Positions 2,920 through 64,000 of a DNA stretch of 64,000 nucleotides are shown in pieces. The DNA lies in contig NZ_CP094718.1 of NCBI RefSeq assembly GCF_025558425.1, forward strand, positions 1,116,001 through 1,180,000, in the 5' to 3' direction. Origin of the DNA: Staphylococcus sp. IVB6240 (lineage in GTDB: Bacteria > Bacillota > Bacilli > Staphylococcales > Staphylococcaceae). The notes below the pieces were generated by a model. That model was not told where the DNA came from, made no database searches, and worked only from the letters and a program-made list of their open reading frames with translations. The stretch's first letter is position 1. Each line of letters starts with the position of its first letter. Position numbers and translations under genes: made by a program.

Positions 2920-3651
2920 ATGCAATTTAAACAAATTAGTGAACAATCTTTTATGATATATTTTGATGCACAGATAAATGAAGAAATATTCAGTGAAGTT
3001 AATGCTGTATCTGATTATTTGAAGTCATTGGAGCATCCATATATCCAAGAGATTGTACCATCATATCGAGCGATTCTTGTCTATTTTGATGGTATCTCAA
3101 TCACTTATGAAGCATTATTAGAAGAGCTTGAGCTATCTACATATGTTTTATCTGCGACGGAAGTCAATCAACCAAGACGTATCGTCAATATTCCTGTCTT
3201 GTATGGTGGGAAATGGGGTCCTGATTTAGAATATGTCGCAGAATATCATAAGTTATCAGTAGAAGAAGTGATTCAATATCATATTGAAGGTTATTATCTT
3301 GTTTATATGATTGGATTTATGCCTGGTTTTCCATTCTTAGGTGGTTTAAATGCTCGCATTCATACACCACGTAAAGAAGAACCACGTTTAAAAATTCCAG
3401 CTGGTTCAGTGGGTATTGCGAACAATCAAACAGGATTGTACCCTGCAGATTCTCCAGGTGGATGGCAAATTATAGGACGCACACCAATCGATGTCTTTGA
3501 CTTAAAACGTGATCCTAAGATTCTTTACCAACCTGGCGATAAAATTAAATTTTATGCGATCAACGAAGAAGAGTTTCTACATATTCAAAAATATGTAGAA
3601 AAAGGACGATTAAATTATGATGAGTGGGTGAGAATCGGCTATGAGCATTAA
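2920..3651 (+). CDS. pxpB: 5-oxoprolinase subunit PxpB (KipI / AHS1 family)
   Basis: One half of the KipI-KipA module that, with PxpA, hydrolyses 5-oxoproline (pyroglutamate) to glutamate using ATP. The protein has 243 residues from this ATG and carries AHS1 features such as IGFMPGFPFLGGL and the PRLKIPAGSVGIA segment. The start is set by GGAAGGGGG at 2905-2913, which would be too close to the in-frame ATG at 2914. KipI/KipA domains are homologous to the carboxyltransferase half of urea carboxylase, which matters here because biotin genes follow. It overlaps pxpC by 11 bases. Confidence 0.88.
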   Translation: MQFKQISEQSFMIYFDAQINEEIFSEVNAVSDYLKSLEHPYIQEIVPSYRAILVYFDGISITYEALLEELELSTYVLSATEVNQPRRIVNIPVLYGGKWGPDLEYVAEYHKLSVEEVIQYHIEGYYLVYMIGFMPGFPFLGGLNARIHTPRKEEPRLKIPAGSVGIANNQTGLYPADSPGGWQIIGRTPIDVFDLKRDPKILYQPGDKIKFYAINEEEFLHIQKYVEKGRLNYDEWVRIGYEH

Positions 3652-14593: not shown

Positions 14594-14633
14594 AACCCTC
14601 CTTTATGCATGTATTCATATGCAAAGGAGGGTT
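14594..14633 (+). promoter_or_regulatory. Hairpin enclosing the comEA ribosome binding site
   Basis: AACCCTCCTTT (14594-14604) pairs perfectly with AAAGGAGGGTT (14623-14633). A further inner stem of about 6 pairs (GCATGT with the stretch ending TATGC, one wobble) forms if bases 14605-14606 bulge. The 3' arm contains the whole Shine-Dalgarno of comEA, 7 bases before its ATG. Only a weak T run (GTTTCAT) follows, so RBS sequestration looks as likely as termination. Confidence 0.7.
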
Positions 14634-14637
14634 TCAT

Positions 14638-15300
14638 ATGTCTTTCATTTCCCAATTACAAGCTTGGTGTTTAAAATACCGTTTCATCTCAGTATTTGCA
14701 ATTGTTTTATTATGTGTAGCAGTATTTGTACTTATTCGATTAATTTCTTCTGATGATGAAGAGGCAGCTTCGACGTCACTCATTCAGCAAACAGAGGTAA
14801 GTGACTCAAATGCAACAGCACACTTATCTCAAGGAAAAACGTCTACAGAACAACAAGCTGTTCCGATTGTTGTTGATGTAAAAGGAGCAGTAAAACATCC
14901 AAATACATATCAGATGATGTCAGATGATCGAATGAAGCAATTGATTGATAAAGCAGGGGTTTTACCTAATGCTGACTTAACAAAAATTAATCTTGTTGAA
15001 AAGTTGACGGATCAAAAGATGATCTATATCCCACAAAAAGGAGAACAGGTTGATCCATCATTATCTGCTGGGCCCAATAATTCAAATGGAGCTAGCCCAG
15101 GGCAAAATCAGGTCATTAATTTGAATACAGCACAACTCAATGATTTAACGAATGTTCCGGGAATAGGACCTGCGAAAGCACAAGCGATATTAGCTTATCG
15201 AGAGGAAAAGGGTCAATTTCAGTCTGTTGAAGAATTGAAAGAAGTGAAAGGTATTGGAGATAAAACATATGAAAACTTAAGCAGTTATTTTACGGTTTGA
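14638..15300 (+). CDS. comEA: Competence DNA-receptor protein ComEA
   Basis: Membrane-anchored receptor that binds incoming double-stranded DNA during transformation. A signal anchor (about residues 19-40) is followed by a polar linker, an SLBB-like domain (VVDVKGAVKHPNTYQM), a second linker and a C-terminal helix-hairpin-helix domain (NLNTAQLNDLTNVPGIGP, then EVKGIGDKTYENL). Length is 220 residues. The ATG at 14638 is fixed by AAAGGAGG; an upstream in-frame ATG at 14605 lacks a site and falls in the hairpin. Confidence 0.93.
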   Translation: MSFISQLQAWCLKYRFISVFAIVLLCVAVFVLIRLISSDDEEAASTSLIQQTEVSDSNATAHLSQGKTSTEQQAVPIVVDVKGAVKHPNTYQMMSDDRMKQLIDKAGVLPNADLTKINLVEKLTDQKMIYIPQKGEQVDPSLSAGPNNSNGASPGQNQVINLNTAQLNDLTNVPGIGPAKAQAILAYREEKGQFQSVEELKEVKGIGDKTYENLSSYFTV

Positions 15301-15365: not shown

Positions 15366-15830
15366 ATGGAAAGAATAGAATGGCATGATTATTTTATGGC
15401 GCAAGCACATTTACTTGCATTGCGATCTACATGTAAACGATTGTCTGTAGGTGCAACAATTATAAAGGATAATCGCATTATTGCAGGTGGTTATAATGGC
15501 TCTGTAGCAGGAGAAGTTCACTGTATTGATGAAGATTGTCTCCTTGAAGATGGACATTGTATTCGTACGATTCATGCAGAAATGAATGCAATATTGCAGT
15601 GTTCAAAACAAGGTGTTTCTACAGAAGGTGCGACAATCTATGTGACACATTTTCCATGTTTAAATTGTACGAAGTCTATCATACAAGCAGGTATCAAGAC
15701 GATCTATTATGCTAAAGATTATCACAATCATGCGTATGCTTTACAGTTACTTGAGCAATCAGGTGTCAAATATGAGCATATTCCTTTTGAACCTGAACGC
15801 ATTGCCAACTATATTATGGATAGCCAATGA
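15366..15830 (+). CDS. comEB: dCMP deaminase-family protein ComEB
   Basis: Zinc-dependent deaminase of about 154 residues. The zinc site is His70-Ala-Glu72 (TIHAEMNA) with the PCLNC cysteine pair. In Bacillus the gene sits in comE but is not strictly needed for transformation. Two ATGs in tandem (15363, 15366) follow AAGGAG at 15353-15358; the second has the better spacing. The stop overlaps the comEC start. Confidence 0.9.
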   Translation: MERIEWHDYFMAQAHLLALRSTCKRLSVGATIIKDNRIIAGGYNGSVAGEVHCIDEDCLLEDGHCIRTIHAEMNAILQCSKQGVSTEGATIYVTHFPCLNCTKSIIQAGIKTIYYAKDYHNHAYALQLLEQSGVKYEHIPFEPERIANYIMDSQ

Positions 15831-18061
15831 TTTACATATTAATAGCATATATCGTTGGTCAGTTCGCTTATCATCATAGCTTATCTGCATGTTGTATTGG
15901 GTTTGTTATGTATGTAAGTATGGTGATAAAGCGACAAACGATATATGTCATATTGATATCTACATTTTGTATCATGATGGGTTACTACATTGAATCAAAC
16001 TCGATGCAGTCTACAACAGGCGATATTCAAGTATCTGACAAAACAATCCATTCCATGATACATATTGAGTCGCTACCTATTTATAATGGGGATTTTTATC
16101 ATACAACTGTTACAATGAAGAACCAAGCTTATCGACTGATTTTTAGAGAAATCAAAAATACCACACGTCAACCGCAAGCCTCATTTTGGGTGGATCATGA
16201 TTGTGAAATAAAAGCGACAACAAAACCCGCACAACAAGAGAATTCACTTCCTACACTATTTACAAATCAACTTGATTTAAATGCTTGTAATATCACATAT
16301 CATATAACGTTAAAAGATAAAATTCTACAGCTACGTAATACAGCAATTGAAAGACTAGCTCAATCTAAGTTATCAGGTTTTCCATATATTATCGCACTAG
16401 TCACTGGGACAACAGATTACATTCCAATACTTCAAAAACAACAATTAAGAGATCTTGGTATTTCTCACTTGTTTGCAGTGAGCGGGACTCATGTTGCCAT
16501 TATGACAGGATTACTCTATATGATTGGAAAACGCTGTCCAATTCCACTGTATGTCGCTAAAGGATGTATACTCATCGTACTGCCACTATTTTTAATATTT
16601 GCTGGTAATAGTCCGAGTGCACAACGAGCGGTTGTGATGGCGATACTAGTCATTCTTTTACTACGATATACACCGCAACAACCACTGTATATTCTACTTA
16701 TTTCCTACATAATTTTATCTGTTTATAATCCTCAGATTCATACCCACATTGGTTTTCAATTCTCCTATACTATCTGTTTTTTATTACTGATGCTTCGTGA
16801 TACTTATATCAATAAAACATTTATCAAAGCTTTTTTTATCACAAGTATGATTTCCATTTTAGGTACGATTCCGATTAGTTATCAATACTTCAATGAACTT
16901 CAGTGGATTGGCTTGATTTCGAATATATTTTTTATTCCACTATATGGTTTTTGTATTATTCCATTATCATTCCTAACAATATTAATTGCTTTACTGTGCC
17001 CATCATTGTTATTTCTTTTTAAACTACCATTTTCTTTCTTTTTTGCTATTCACAAATTTATTTTAGTTTGTCTTAAACCACTTATTGCATTTAAAGTCAT
17101 TCTCCCAGACTTTGGTGAGTTGGGATACGCCACTTCTATAGTATTTACTATCTTTTTTGCGTACTTTTTAGCACAAAACAAGCGTGGCGTGCTTATCATC
17201 TTAACAGCTTGCACTTTTATAGTGTTATTGATTTGTCATCCTCATCATGAAAATCGAATGACGATGATTGATGTTGGTCAAGGAGATGCCATCCTATTTG
17301 AAACGTCAACTGGGCAGACGGTATTAATAGATACAGGAGGGGAGCGGGAGGATAAAAATCATTTTGCACACAAATTATCTATCACTGATCAGAAATTATT
17401 TCCATATTTGAAGACTCGTGGCATTCATAAGATTGATTATTTAATTCTTACACATCCACATGCCGATCACATGGGAGAATTAGAACATCTTGCACAACGG
17501 GTAATAATTGAAAACATTGTGATTAATCCTAATCATTTTGATAAGGTGAATGCTACAATTGTTCAAAAGGTATTAAGACAAGAACAATCGAAACTTTGGG
17601 ATTTTAAAAAATTGAATCAACTTAAATTAGGTGATTTTAAATTTCAATTTTTAAATTGTGATGTTGAAATGAGTGATGACCCTAACGAACATTCTATTGT
17701 GACTTTAGTGAATATTAATCAATACAAATTATTATTGATGGGGGATGCGACTATAAAAAATGAGGAAAAGCTCTTGCAATCGTATCAATTACCTAAGATT
17801 GATATTTTGAAAGTAGGCCATCATGGTAGTAAAACAAGCAGTTCTGTGGCTTTTCTTGAAACAATTAAACCAGATATTGCCCTTATTTCAGTAGCAAAAC
17901 ATAATATGTATCATTTACCAAGCCCACTGATATTAGATAGGTTTATCAATAATCATATCCCCGTCTATAGTACTGCGGATAACCATCATGTGATTATTAC
18001 ATTCCCTAATGATATAAATCATTCTTATAAATTGAGCCATGAGTCAAAGGGTGATTCATAG
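15827..18061 (+). CDS. comEC: DNA uptake channel ComEC/Rec2
   Basis: Forms the membrane channel for single-stranded DNA. Order: N-terminal hydrophobic helices, a soluble OB-like segment, the Competence domain with many helices (from about residue 180, LFAVSGTHVAIMTGLL), and a C-terminal metallo-beta-lactamase domain with MIDVGQGDAILFE and the zinc-type HPHADH motif near residue 543. The 744 residues are full length and I see no frame break. It overlaps comEB by 4 bases. Confidence 0.94.
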   Translation: MIYILIAYIVGQFAYHHSLSACCIGFVMYVSMVIKRQTIYVILISTFCIMMGYYIESNSMQSTTGDIQVSDKTIHSMIHIESLPIYNGDFYHTTVTMKNQAYRLIFREIKNTTRQPQASFWVDHDCEIKATTKPAQQENSLPTLFTNQLDLNACNITYHITLKDKILQLRNTAIERLAQSKLSGFPYIIALVTGTTDYIPILQKQQLRDLGISHLFAVSGTHVAIMTGLLYMIGKRCPIPLYVAKGCILIVLPLFLIFAGNSPSAQRAVVMAILVILLLRYTPQQPLYILLISYIILSVYNPQIHTHIGFQFSYTICFLLLMLRDTYINKTFIKAFFITSMISILGTIPISYQYFNELQWIGLISNIFFIPLYGFCIIPLSFLTILIALLCPSLLFLFKLPFSFFFAIHKFILVCLKPLIAFKVILPDFGELGYATSIVFTIFFAYFLAQNKRGVLIILTACTFIVLLICHPHHENRMTMIDVGQGDAILFETSTGQTVLIDTGGEREDKNHFAHKLSITDQKLFPYLKTRGIHKIDYLILTHPHADHMGELEHLAQRVIIENIVINPNHFDKVNATIVQKVLRQEQSKLWDFKKLNQLKLGDFKFQFLNCDVEMSDDPNEHSIVTLVNINQYKLLLMGDATIKNEEKLLQSYQLPKIDILKVGHHGSKTSSSVAFLETIKPDIALISVAKHNMYHLPSPLILDRFINNHIPVYSTADNHHVIITFPNDINHSYKLSHESKGDS

Positions 18062-61144: not shown

Positions 61145-62119
61145 ATGCAATTTCTATTGGATACAGTGATAAAGCATGCGATTACAGAAGGGGCATCAGA
61201 TATTCATTTTATTCCTTCTAATGAACAAGTAGAGGTGAATTTTCGAATTAAAGACCGATTAAGTTGTTACGACACATTAAATTCTGAGACGTATCAACGT
61301 TTACTGACGCTCCTAAAATTTCAAGCAGGATTAGATGTATCATCTAGGCATCGCGCACAAAGCGGACGCTATATTTATCAATTTAAAGAACTATACTACT
61401 TGCGTGTATCTACATTGCCTTTAAACTTAGGGACTGAAAGTTGTGTTGTGCGCATTACACCACAATAATTCCAAAACATATCACTCAAAGATACAGAGGA
61501 TATTTGTCGCTTGATGGAAAAGAAGCAAGGACTGATCTTATTCAGTGGGCCCACTGGTGCTGGAAAGAGCACACTTATGTATCAGATGGTACTTTATGCC
61601 AAACAAGCACTTAATCTAAATATCATCACGATTGAAGATCCGGTCGAACAGATTCTAAATGGCGTCACACAAATATCTGTAAATGAAAAAGCAGATATCA
61701 CATATAGTGCATCATTAAAAGCCATTTTACGTTGTGACCCAGACGTCATACTTATTGGGGAAATACGAGATGCCAGAATAGCCAAAGAAGTGATACAAGC
61801 GAGTTTAAGTGGTCATCTTGTTCTAACAACCATCCATGCAAATGATTGCCAAGGTGTACTGCTCAGATTATTAGAAATGGGCATTCCACAACAAGATATA
61901 CTTCAAGCCACCAATTTAATCGTCAATCAACGGCTTGTGACGACTGTAGATCAAAAAAGAGAACTTGTATATGAAACAATGTTACATTCAGACATTCAAC
62001 ATTTTTTAACGCATGATTTCCAACTTCCTGGAACATTTACAAGCTTGTCAGAAAAACTGAATTTATTAAATGATAAGGGGGTTATTGATGGAGCCACTCT
62101 TAGAAAGTATCAGAAGTAG
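61145..62119 (+). pseudogene. comGA: Competence pseudopilus ATPase ComGA, interrupted by a premature stop
   Basis: GspE/PilT-type ATPase that powers the competence pseudopilus. The frame runs 325 codons including the final stop, the normal length, but codon 108 (61466-61468) is TAA. Codons 1-107 encode the N-terminal domain only. After the stop the same frame continues, with Walker A GPTGAGKST and Walker B-like DPDVILIGEIRD intact. S. aureus ComGA, as I recall, has Tyr here, so one base change (TAT/TAC to TAA) explains it. A TTG/ATG at 61511-61516 could restart a 201-residue fragment, but no good binding site precedes it. Confidence 0.88.
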
Positions 62120-63155
62120 ACGATCCTTTGCACTTATTAAAGCGAATCATTTATTAATTATCGACCGTGTTTGCCAGTTATTAAATCACGGTTTTACCTT
62201 TGTAGAAGCCATTCAATTTGTTTATAAACAGCTAGATATCAGAGATGAAAAATTGAATGATCAGTTGCAACAATCCATATTAAATGGTGGATCCTGTTAT
62301 GACATATTTAAGTTATTTAAATATCCAGATATCATTCTTATGCAAATTTATTTTGCTGAGAAATATAGTGAATTAAGTACAACACTTGAACAATGTTCGA
62401 TCTTTTATGGTAACCATTTAAAATTAAAAGCGCAGTTCATTAAGGCCATTCAATATCCTATTCTGCTCCTCTTTATTTTTATTTTCCTCATCGTGACCCT
62501 TAATAAAACGGTTATTCCAGAATTTGAACATATGTATGCAACTATGCAAATCAATCATACTTTTACACAATTACTATTAAAAGCTATTCTTGCACATTTT
62601 CCATTATTCTTTTTTATGAGCATGATAGCAATCTGTATATTTATTTATCTTTTTAAACATTGGCTCAGACAACAATCCATTAAAAAGCAAATTGACGTAT
62701 TAACACACATGCCTGGTTTTAAAAATTATTTCCGCTTATTCACCACTTATCAAATCTCACAACAATTTTCTCTCTTTTTTAAAAACGGTATTAAGTTAAA
62801 TGATATTGTTCAAATATATGAAAACCAAAATGAAAATGGGTTTTTGAAGTATTTTGGACAATATATGAAAACAGAAATTCAAAAAGGGCAGTCATTTTCA
62901 AACATACTTCAATCATTAAATTGCTTTGAAAAACATTTCATCTCATACATTGAACAAGGGGAAGAAAGAGATAAATTAGATGTTGAATTACACATTTATA
63001 GTAAATTCCTTTTGGATCATATTCAGTTCTTTATAAAGAAGCACATTAAGCTTATTCAGCCCACAATGTTTATTGTCATTGGGTTATTAATTATGGGTGT
63101 TTATTTAGAAATGATGCTACCAGTATTGGAAATGATGCAAAATATTGAACAATAG
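62088..63155 (+). CDS. comGB: Competence pseudopilus membrane protein ComGB
   Basis: GspF/PilC-type platform protein of 355 residues with three hydrophobic segments (IQYPILLLFIFIFLIV, FPLFFFMSMIAICIFIYL and the C-terminal MFIVIGLLIMGVYLEMML) and two cytosolic helical domains. The ATG at 62088 has AAGGGGG six bases upstream and overlaps the end of comGA by 32 bases, so its translation may depend partly on comGA translation. Confidence 0.9.
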   Translation: MEPLLESIRSRRSFALIKANHLLIIDRVCQLLNHGFTFVEAIQFVYKQLDIRDEKLNDQLQQSILNGGSCYDIFKLFKYPDIILMQIYFAEKYSELSTTLEQCSIFYGNHLKLKAQFIKAIQYPILLLFIFIFLIVTLNKTVIPEFEHMYATMQINHTFTQLLLKAILAHFPLFFFMSMIAICIFIYLFKHWLRQQSIKKQIDVLTHMPGFKNYFRLFTTYQISQQFSLFFKNGIKLNDIVQIYENQNENGFLKYFGQYMKTEIQKGQSFSNILQSLNCFEKHFISYIEQGEERDKLDVELHIYSKFLLDHIQFFIKKHIKLIQPTMFIVIGLLIMGVYLEMMLPVLEMMQNIEQ

Positions 63156-63165
63156 GAGTAAAAAC

Positions 63166-63486
63166 ATGAAACAATTACTATCAAAATTGCGACAAACGAA
63201 AGGATTCACACTCATTGAGATGCTACTCGTTTTACTGATTATAAGTGTACTTCTCATTTTAATTATCCCAAATATCGCAAAACAATCTGATCATATTCAA
63301 AAAACAGGATGCAAAGCACAAATGCGCCTTGTCGACAGTCAAATAGAAGCCTATACTTTAAAATTTAATCAAAAACCAAATTCGATAGATGATTTAATTC
63401 GGGAAGGGTATTTAAAAGATGTTCAAAAGACTTGTAAATCTGGGGAAACAATTCGTATTCAAAATGGCGAGGCCGTTGCATCATAA
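63166..63486 (+). CDS. comGC: Major competence pseudopilin ComGC
   Basis: A 106-residue type IV-like pseudopilin. The prepilin signal TKG/FTLIEMLLVLLIISVLLI has Gly13-Phe14 at the cleavage site and Glu18 at mature position 5. Two Cys residues (TGCKAQ and KTCKSG) could form the known intramolecular disulfide. AGGAG lies 7 bases before the ATG. Confidence 0.93.
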   Translation: MKQLLSKLRQTKGFTLIEMLLVLLIISVLLILIIPNIAKQSDHIQKTGCKAQMRLVDSQIEAYTLKFNQKPNSIDDLIREGYLKDVQKTCKSGETIRIQNGEAVAS

Positions 63487-63910
63487 AAATGTTTTTACCT
63501 TAGTCGAAATGTTAATTGTTATGTGCGTTATTTCTATCACGTTGTACCTCTTTATGACTATTAAATCATCGATGTATTCACAACAAAACATAAAAGATCA
63601 AATCAAGTTATTGACAAGCAAGATTGATTATTACCAGGCATATGCTATCAAACATAGGCAAACAGTACTCATGGTATTTCGCCCAAACAAAAATAATATT
63701 CGAGTTGTATTTCAAAATGGCCAAAAGGATATCGTGATACCATTGTCACCTTTACATCTTGATGAAGGAAGTACACTTAATACAATTGCTTTTGACAAAG
63801 ATGGGAATATCTTGAAATTCGGTAAATTAAAGTTCCAATATATGCAATATCATTTTGACTTAATATTTCATATCGAACAAGGGAGGTATCGTATTGTAAG
63901 TAATGAATAA
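63464..63910 (+). CDS. comGD: Minor pseudopilin ComGD
   Basis: A 148-residue type IV pseudopilin with the signal HHKNV/FTLVEMLIVMCVISI. Glu15 is the usual +5 Glu, but the residue before the cleavage site is Val10 where Gly, Ala or Ser is expected. The start at 63464 gives the S. aureus length; it overlaps comGC by 23 bases and its binding site (GGGG) is distant, so the exact start is uncertain. Confidence 0.82.
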   Translation: MARPLHHKNVFTLVEMLIVMCVISITLYLFMTIKSSMYSQQNIKDQIKLLTSKIDYYQAYAIKHRQTVLMVFRPNKNNIRVVFQNGQKDIVIPLSPLHLDEGSTLNTIAFDKDGNILKFGKLKFQYMQYHFDLIFHIEQGRYRIVSNE

Positions 63911-64000
63911 AAAAGGTTATACACTGTTAGAAGCGCTTTTTGCATTTTTTCTATTTTCTATCATCTGTTTTTCACTCATTCCAATATTACAGCAACTAGA
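63903..64000 (+). CDS. comGE: Minor pseudopilin, probably ComGE (cut by window end)
   Basis: Starts MNKKGYTLLEALFAFFLFSI: Gly5-Tyr6 cleavage site, Glu at +5 and a hydrophobic helix, a clear pseudopilin N-terminus. GGGAGG lies 14-19 bases upstream, within comGD, which it overlaps by 8 bases. Position after comGD suggests ComGE, but ComGF is possible since the rest is outside the window. Confidence 0.7.
   Translation, partial: MNKKGYTLLEALFAFFLFSIICFSLIPILQQL

What the first reader, a model, noticed from the sequence alone, without database searches (positions are those of the whole stretch)
61145..62119. Single in-frame stop breaks the competence ATPase ComGA
The comGA frame is intact over its full normal length except for a TAA at 61466-61468. 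The upstream part lacks the ATPase motifs; the downstream part keeps both Walker motifs. A single base change from TAT or TAC explains it, which means either very recent loss, phase-like variation by point mutation, or a sequencing error. The comE genes and comGB-comGD have open frames, so only this step is broken. Loss of transformability with the rest kept would be a recent event in this lineage.
Basis: partly seen in the sequence, partly recalled or inferred. Interest (0 to 1): 0.75.

Follow-up and report, generated by a model that had tools for sequence, protein, structure and literature searches.

The report
Decaying DNA-uptake genes in camel staphylococcus
The stop codon is really in the sequence, but it is one of four breaks found in this strain's DNA-uptake genes, while other strains of what is most likely the same camel staphylococcus keep intact copies of at least two of those genes, so this looks like ordinary recent loss of a trait and not a single broken step.

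Summary
comGA (61145-62119) is a 324-codon frame interrupted once, by TAA at 61466-61468, between the N-terminal part and the ATPase core. The inference "only this step is broken" fails. In the same chromosome comK1 is 7 bases short and frameshifted, and comGF and sigH are each split between two frames. Twelve of 16 competence genes surveyed have open frames. In the window, 0 of 58 non-competence genes with a colinear S. rostri counterpart are broken. The species is most likely Staphylococcus dromedarii: contigs carrying full-length ComGA and ComK1 have exactly the published chromosome lengths of IVB6238 and IVB6233. So the stop is polymorphic and young: one other residue of 324 differs. SigH and ComK1 are each needed for comG expression in S. 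aureus, so the stop probably sits in a silent operon. comGA is clearly broken or unmatched in 7 of 84 Staphylococcus species genomes. Verdict: strain-level pathway decay of a known kind. The sigH and comGF frameshifts lie at poly-A runs and need resequencing.

The parts
61145..61468 (+). comGA, upstream piece: 107 codons and the premature stop
61466..61468 (+). premature TAA at codon 108
61469..62119 (+). comGA, downstream piece in the same frame (216 codons and terminal stop) with the ATPase core
61511..61516 (+). possible restart: TTG at 61511 and in-frame ATG at 61514; an AGAGG lies 11 bases before the TTG
   Evidence: use not tested
62070..63155 (+). comGB, open (mechanical ORF; the real start may lie further on)
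63166..63486 (+). comGC, open
63461..63910 (+). comGD, open (aligned part; start not settled)
63903..64000 (+). comGE, open, cut by the window end (97 codons in L058 6904-7197); named by position and by likeness to the S. rostri frame
14605..15300 (+). comEA-like, open (HHH and SLBB domains)
15827..18061 (+). comEC, open, 744 codons

Best explanation
This strain has most likely lost natural competence, and comGA is one casualty of a pathway under relaxed selection. Shown: comGA carries a nonsense codon, comK1 is 7 bases short and frameshifted, comGF and sigH are each read in two frames; the other 12 surveyed competence genes and the compared non-competence genes of the window are open. Shown: full-length ComGA and ComK1 nearly or wholly identical to this strain's, on contigs attributed by exact length to other strains of S. 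dromedarii. Inferred: with SigH and ComK1 broken the comG operon is hardly transcribed, so losing ComGA costs little more. Inferred: the upstream product is an N-terminal domain without ATPase motifs and any downstream product lacks the domain that PilB/GspE-type hexamers use, so no working pilus motor is made. The order of the lesions is unknown.
For: comGA stop. comK1: one search matches only model positions 36-149 in a 175-codon frame; the first ORF ends after 48 codons, the rest lies in another frame; the 214-residue ComK P0132 is identical over the 162 residues queried. sigH: two frames here, one frame of 196 residues in S. rostri and S. microti; own is the only one of 84 genomes with two adjacent part-matches. 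comGF: two frames here; one frame in S. rostri (L061) and in the sister genomes G074 and G045. Controls: 0 of 58 non-competence window genes broken; one-sided Fisher, 4 of 16 against 0 of 58, P = 0.0016; against 1 of 59 (counting secA2) P = 0.0065. Strains: contigs of 2,261,574 and 2,298,032 bases equal IVB6238 and IVB6233. In S. aureus, deletion of sigH or comK1 abolishes PcomG expression and transformation (PMC10182052, passages).
Against: Twelve of 16 surveyed competence genes are open, so decay is partial. The sigH and comGF lesions are single-base length differences at A8 and A6 runs; the dromedary genomes were assembled from PacBio reads and polished with the same reads, with no Illumina or Nanopore mentioned in the main text, the setting in which such errors can persist. 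The Fisher test takes its controls from the window only. Transformability was not measured.
Confidence: 0.85

Rival explanations
1. The stop, and with it the frameshifts, are errors of the assembly; the strain has intact competence genes.
For: sigH and comGF lesions lie at poly-A runs; long-read-only assembly; other strains have intact comGA and comK1.
Against: 0 of 58 control genes with 99 A/T runs of six or more are broken; the comGA change is a substitution and the comK1 change a 7-base difference, not typical of such errors; the 107-residue product is also on a 6,949-base contig, though its independence is unknown.
Confidence: 0.1
2. ComGA loss is a single recent event in an otherwise working pathway.
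For: Near-identity to the intact allele apart from the stop and one residue; comE, comC, comF, dprA and coiA open.
Against: comK1, sigH and comGF are disrupted too.
Confidence: 0.04
3. The two halves of ComGA are both made, by restart at 61511 or 61514, and assemble into a working two-piece ATPase.
For: The stop falls between the N-terminal part and the core; a purine-rich AGAGG precedes the internal TTG by 11 bases; single lesions in three other species lie in the same linker.
Against: In G007 the stop is at 128, and the next ORF start listed there, an ATG, lies past the P-loop; in G031 the core is not found; the regulators are broken in this strain; no unusual RNA fold at the site (z -0.26).
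Confidence: 0.01

Closest known systems
Competence type IV pilus ATPase ComGA (NF041000; PF00437 T2SSE family with PilB, GspE, PilT)
   Same: Operon position, 324-codon frame and model coverage when read from a near-identical intact copy
   Different: Interrupted at codon 108; no intact polypeptide expected
Within-species pseudogenisation of transformation genes, e.g. comM in Acinetobacter baumannii (PMC11472951, passages)
   Same: Intact and broken alleles of a transformation gene side by side within one species
   Different: There mostly mobile-element insertions into one gene whose loss does not fully block recombination; here small mutations in four genes including both activators, no insertion seen in these four
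Staphylococcal competence regulon under SigH and ComK1 (S. aureus; PMC3486894 and PMC10182052, passages)
   Same: Same genes; SigH and ComK1 control comG in S. aureus
   Different: Both regulator genes are disrupted here

Membership tests
ComGA (NF041000, equivalog) | Protein reaches the curated 300-bit cut-off | tested here: not met
   Window pieces score 94.3 and 209 bits; intact P0003 scores 316.4
ComGA (NF041000, equivalog) | First gene of a comG operon with comGB and pilin genes | tested here: met
Pseudogene | Frame interrupted relative to intact orthologues | tested here: met
Pseudogene | No functional product | not testable with these tools
   needs protein detection and a transformation assay
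Competence pathway decay | Lesions in more than one competence gene, beyond the local background | tested here: met
   4 of 16 competence genes against 0 of 58 control genes
Competence pathway decay | Lesions confirmed by independent reads | not tested
   no reads available here
Phase-variable gene | Reversible change at a repeat tract, with mixed states | tested here: inconclusive
   The comGA lesion is a substitution and not at a repeat tract; sigH meets at an A8 run but no data on mixed states

The most novel reading that the evidence does not exclude
Breaks of comGA gather at the linker between the N-terminal domain and the ATPase core in four staphylococcal lineages (codons 108-128). If that is not chance, the separate halves may be tolerated or even used, for example as a two-piece ComGA or as a free N-terminal domain with a role apart from DNA uptake, so that ComGA splits preferentially at this point when competence fades.
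Probability: 0.04. Interest if true: 0.6.

Novelty: new member of a known kind. Interest (0 to 1): 0.3.

Why it matters
It turns a single-gene story into a pathway story: a staphylococcus of dromedaries appears to carry intact and broken competence genes in strains that are more than 99% identical (ANI from PMC13322412, section 4). That makes the question why non-transforming species keep competence genes (raised in PMC8938553, passages) testable by comparing sister strains, and it warns against calling a strain competent from a partial gene list.

Tried and rejected
Without result: plasmid collection search with the comGA region (no match). dN/dS of comGA against four relatives: synonymous sites mostly saturated (ratios computable in 5 of 20 comparisons, 0.02-0.05), so uninformative for the age of the stop. 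Promoter scan and RNA fold around the stop: nothing unusual.

Considered and rejected: three other apparent stops in the window lie in leader sequence upstream of the HemW-like and rpsU-like genes and in the last codons of a 5-formyltetrahydrofolate cyclo-ligase-like gene (gene names recalled). I first took the species for S. muscae (recall); a paper on S. dromedarii with matching contig lengths replaced that. The own chromosome (2,195,277 bases) equals none of the five published lengths; the type strain is listed as 2,192,277, so the strain itself is not identified. comK2: one ComK match only in the own genome, but the second copy is near threshold in close relatives, so absence is not claimed. 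Structure prediction and fold search were not used.

Full report
Check of the observation. The comGA frame runs from ATG 61145 to the stop at 62117-62119 and is interrupted once, by TAA at 61466-61468. In the own genome the T2SSE family has one match over its cut-off, this one, with one TAA inside. The first 107 residues match only the start of the ComGA model and the downstream 202 residues match the ATPase core; neither reaches the 300-bit cut-off, whereas the near-identical intact protein scores 316.4. In solved relatives (PilF, GspE, PilB) the alignment continues across this point. That the stop lies at a linker between two domains follows from the model coverage; the domain names are recalled knowledge of the family.

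Background. I took 81 ORFs of the colinear S. rostri contig. Sixty-six have a match in the window, two of them only to paralogous genes, leaving 64. Four of these 64 alignments contain a stop; three are not gene lesions (leader sequence twice, the last three codons once). comGA is the only true internal stop, and no frameshift is seen. Without the six competence genes, 58 control genes (50,358 bases, 99 A/T runs of six or more) remain, 0 of them broken.

Other competence genes of the same chromosome. comK1: the own genome matches only model positions 36-149, in a 175-codon frame. The gene begins in one frame, which ends after 48 codons, and continues in another; from start to stop it is 7 bases shorter than the 214-codon gene of a near-identical assembly (arithmetic). 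sigH: named by position before nusG and secE (recalled) and as a sigma-70 family protein; it is one frame of 196 residues in S. rostri and S. microti but two frames here, meeting at an A8 run. Over 84 genomes, own is the only one with two adjacent part-matches, G007 has an internal TAG, G059 (one TAA) and G082 (short match) were not examined, and the best match of the other 80 has no stop. comGF: one frame in S. rostri and in the sister genomes G074 and G045, but two frames here, meeting at an A6 run; the S. microti counterpart also aligns in two frames of the own sequence. Open in the own genome: comEA, comEC, comGB, comGC, comGD, comGE, comGG, comC (261), comFA and comFC (against S. microti; named by position, recalled), coiA (325) and dprA (295). 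So 4 of 16 surveyed competence genes are broken. One-sided Fisher against 0 of 58 control genes gives P = 0.0016, and P = 0.0065 if secA2, which has two in-frame stops in this chromosome, is counted among the controls. The controls come from the window only.

Other strains. A 324-residue ComGA that differs only at the stop and at one residue four codons on stands on one contig of 2,261,574 bases. An intact 214-residue ComK, identical over the 162 residues queried, is on 3 contigs, the longest of 2,298,032 bases. These lengths equal the published chromosomes of S. dromedarii IVB6238 and IVB6233 (PMC13322412, sections 3 and 4 read); the five strains share ANI of 99.43-99.89%. That the contigs are these strains is inferred from exact length, since the tool hides the names. 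The own chromosome, 2,195,277 bases, is near the listed type strain (2,192,277) without equalling it. The 107-residue product also occurs on a 6,949-base contig whose independence is unknown. [quoted passage not shown]

Meaning. In S. aureus deletion of sigH or of comK1 abolishes PcomG expression and transformation (PMC10182052, passages). If this holds here, comG is silent in this strain and the comGA stop is one mark of relaxed selection. The mutation types differ (a substitution, a 7-base difference, two single-base length differences), as expected of decay and not of one error source. The two poly-A lesions are the weakest.

Wider pattern. Among 84 Staphylococcus genomes, one per species, comGA is clearly broken in 6 (own, G007, G031, G046, G056, G066) and unmatched in 1 (G064, a draft of about 140 contigs that also has no comGB match), 7 of 84 together; in G023 the C-terminal end is irregular and was left out of this count. 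Lesion points: residue 108 (own), about 110 (G046), 109-115 (G031), 128 (G007), about 281 (G066); G056 has six stops. Taking G023 at 291 and leaving out G056 and G064, four of six lesions fall within 21 residues; a uniform model gives 0.012, a test chosen after seeing the data. G007 has both a comGA and a sigH stop. Stops, splits or missing matches were also listed for comEC (G012, G017, G056, G067), dprA (G056, G058, G083; no match in G014 and G018), comC (G032; no match in G056 and G061) and coiA (no match in six genomes, one TAG in G023); these were not examined further, and draft contig ends may explain some.

Literature. Searches on competence gene decay in staphylococci listed no paper whose title or abstract start is about comGA pseudogenes or about this species; only passages of some listed papers were seen. 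The two papers on the dromedary strains hold no occurrence of 'competence' in their main text. A study of natural transformation within two other species found inactivation of transformation genes rarely to explain variation apart from comM (PMC11472951, passages).

Verdict. The stop is real in the assembly, most likely real in the strain, and part of a partial, recent decay of competence; sister strains keep at least comGA or comK1 intact. It is ordinary in kind; its use lies in the contrast between strains.

Noticed in passing
G000:C1:660115-660752, minus strand (L063 1116-1753): comK1 frameshifted, 7 bases shorter than the intact gene of a near-identical assembly; outside the window.
   Followed up: yes
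G000:C1:263429-263993 (L087 about 2930-3494): sigH read in two frames that meet at an A8 run; one stop-free match in 80 of 84 genus genomes.
   Followed up: partly
L058 7133-7584 (window-equivalent 64132-64583, just past the window end): comGF read in two frames that meet at an A6 run; one frame in S. rostri and in sister genomes G074 and G045.
   Followed up: partly
L089 2295-4682 (G000:C1:157294-159681): Accessory secA2-like gene carries two in-frame stops in this chromosome against 796 codons in S. rostri and S. americanisciuri.
   Followed up: no
L047 and L109 (genome G007): Another staphylococcal species has both a comGA stop (residue 128) and an internal sigH stop: a parallel case.
   Followed up: partly
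L048 (genome G056): Advanced decay: comGA with six stops, comEC, dprA and comK in pieces, no comC match.
   Followed up: no
L050 (genome G031): comGA core not found; its N-terminal part and the comGB match of this genome are each reported in a 415-codon frame, suggesting an in-frame fusion by deletion.
   Followed up: no
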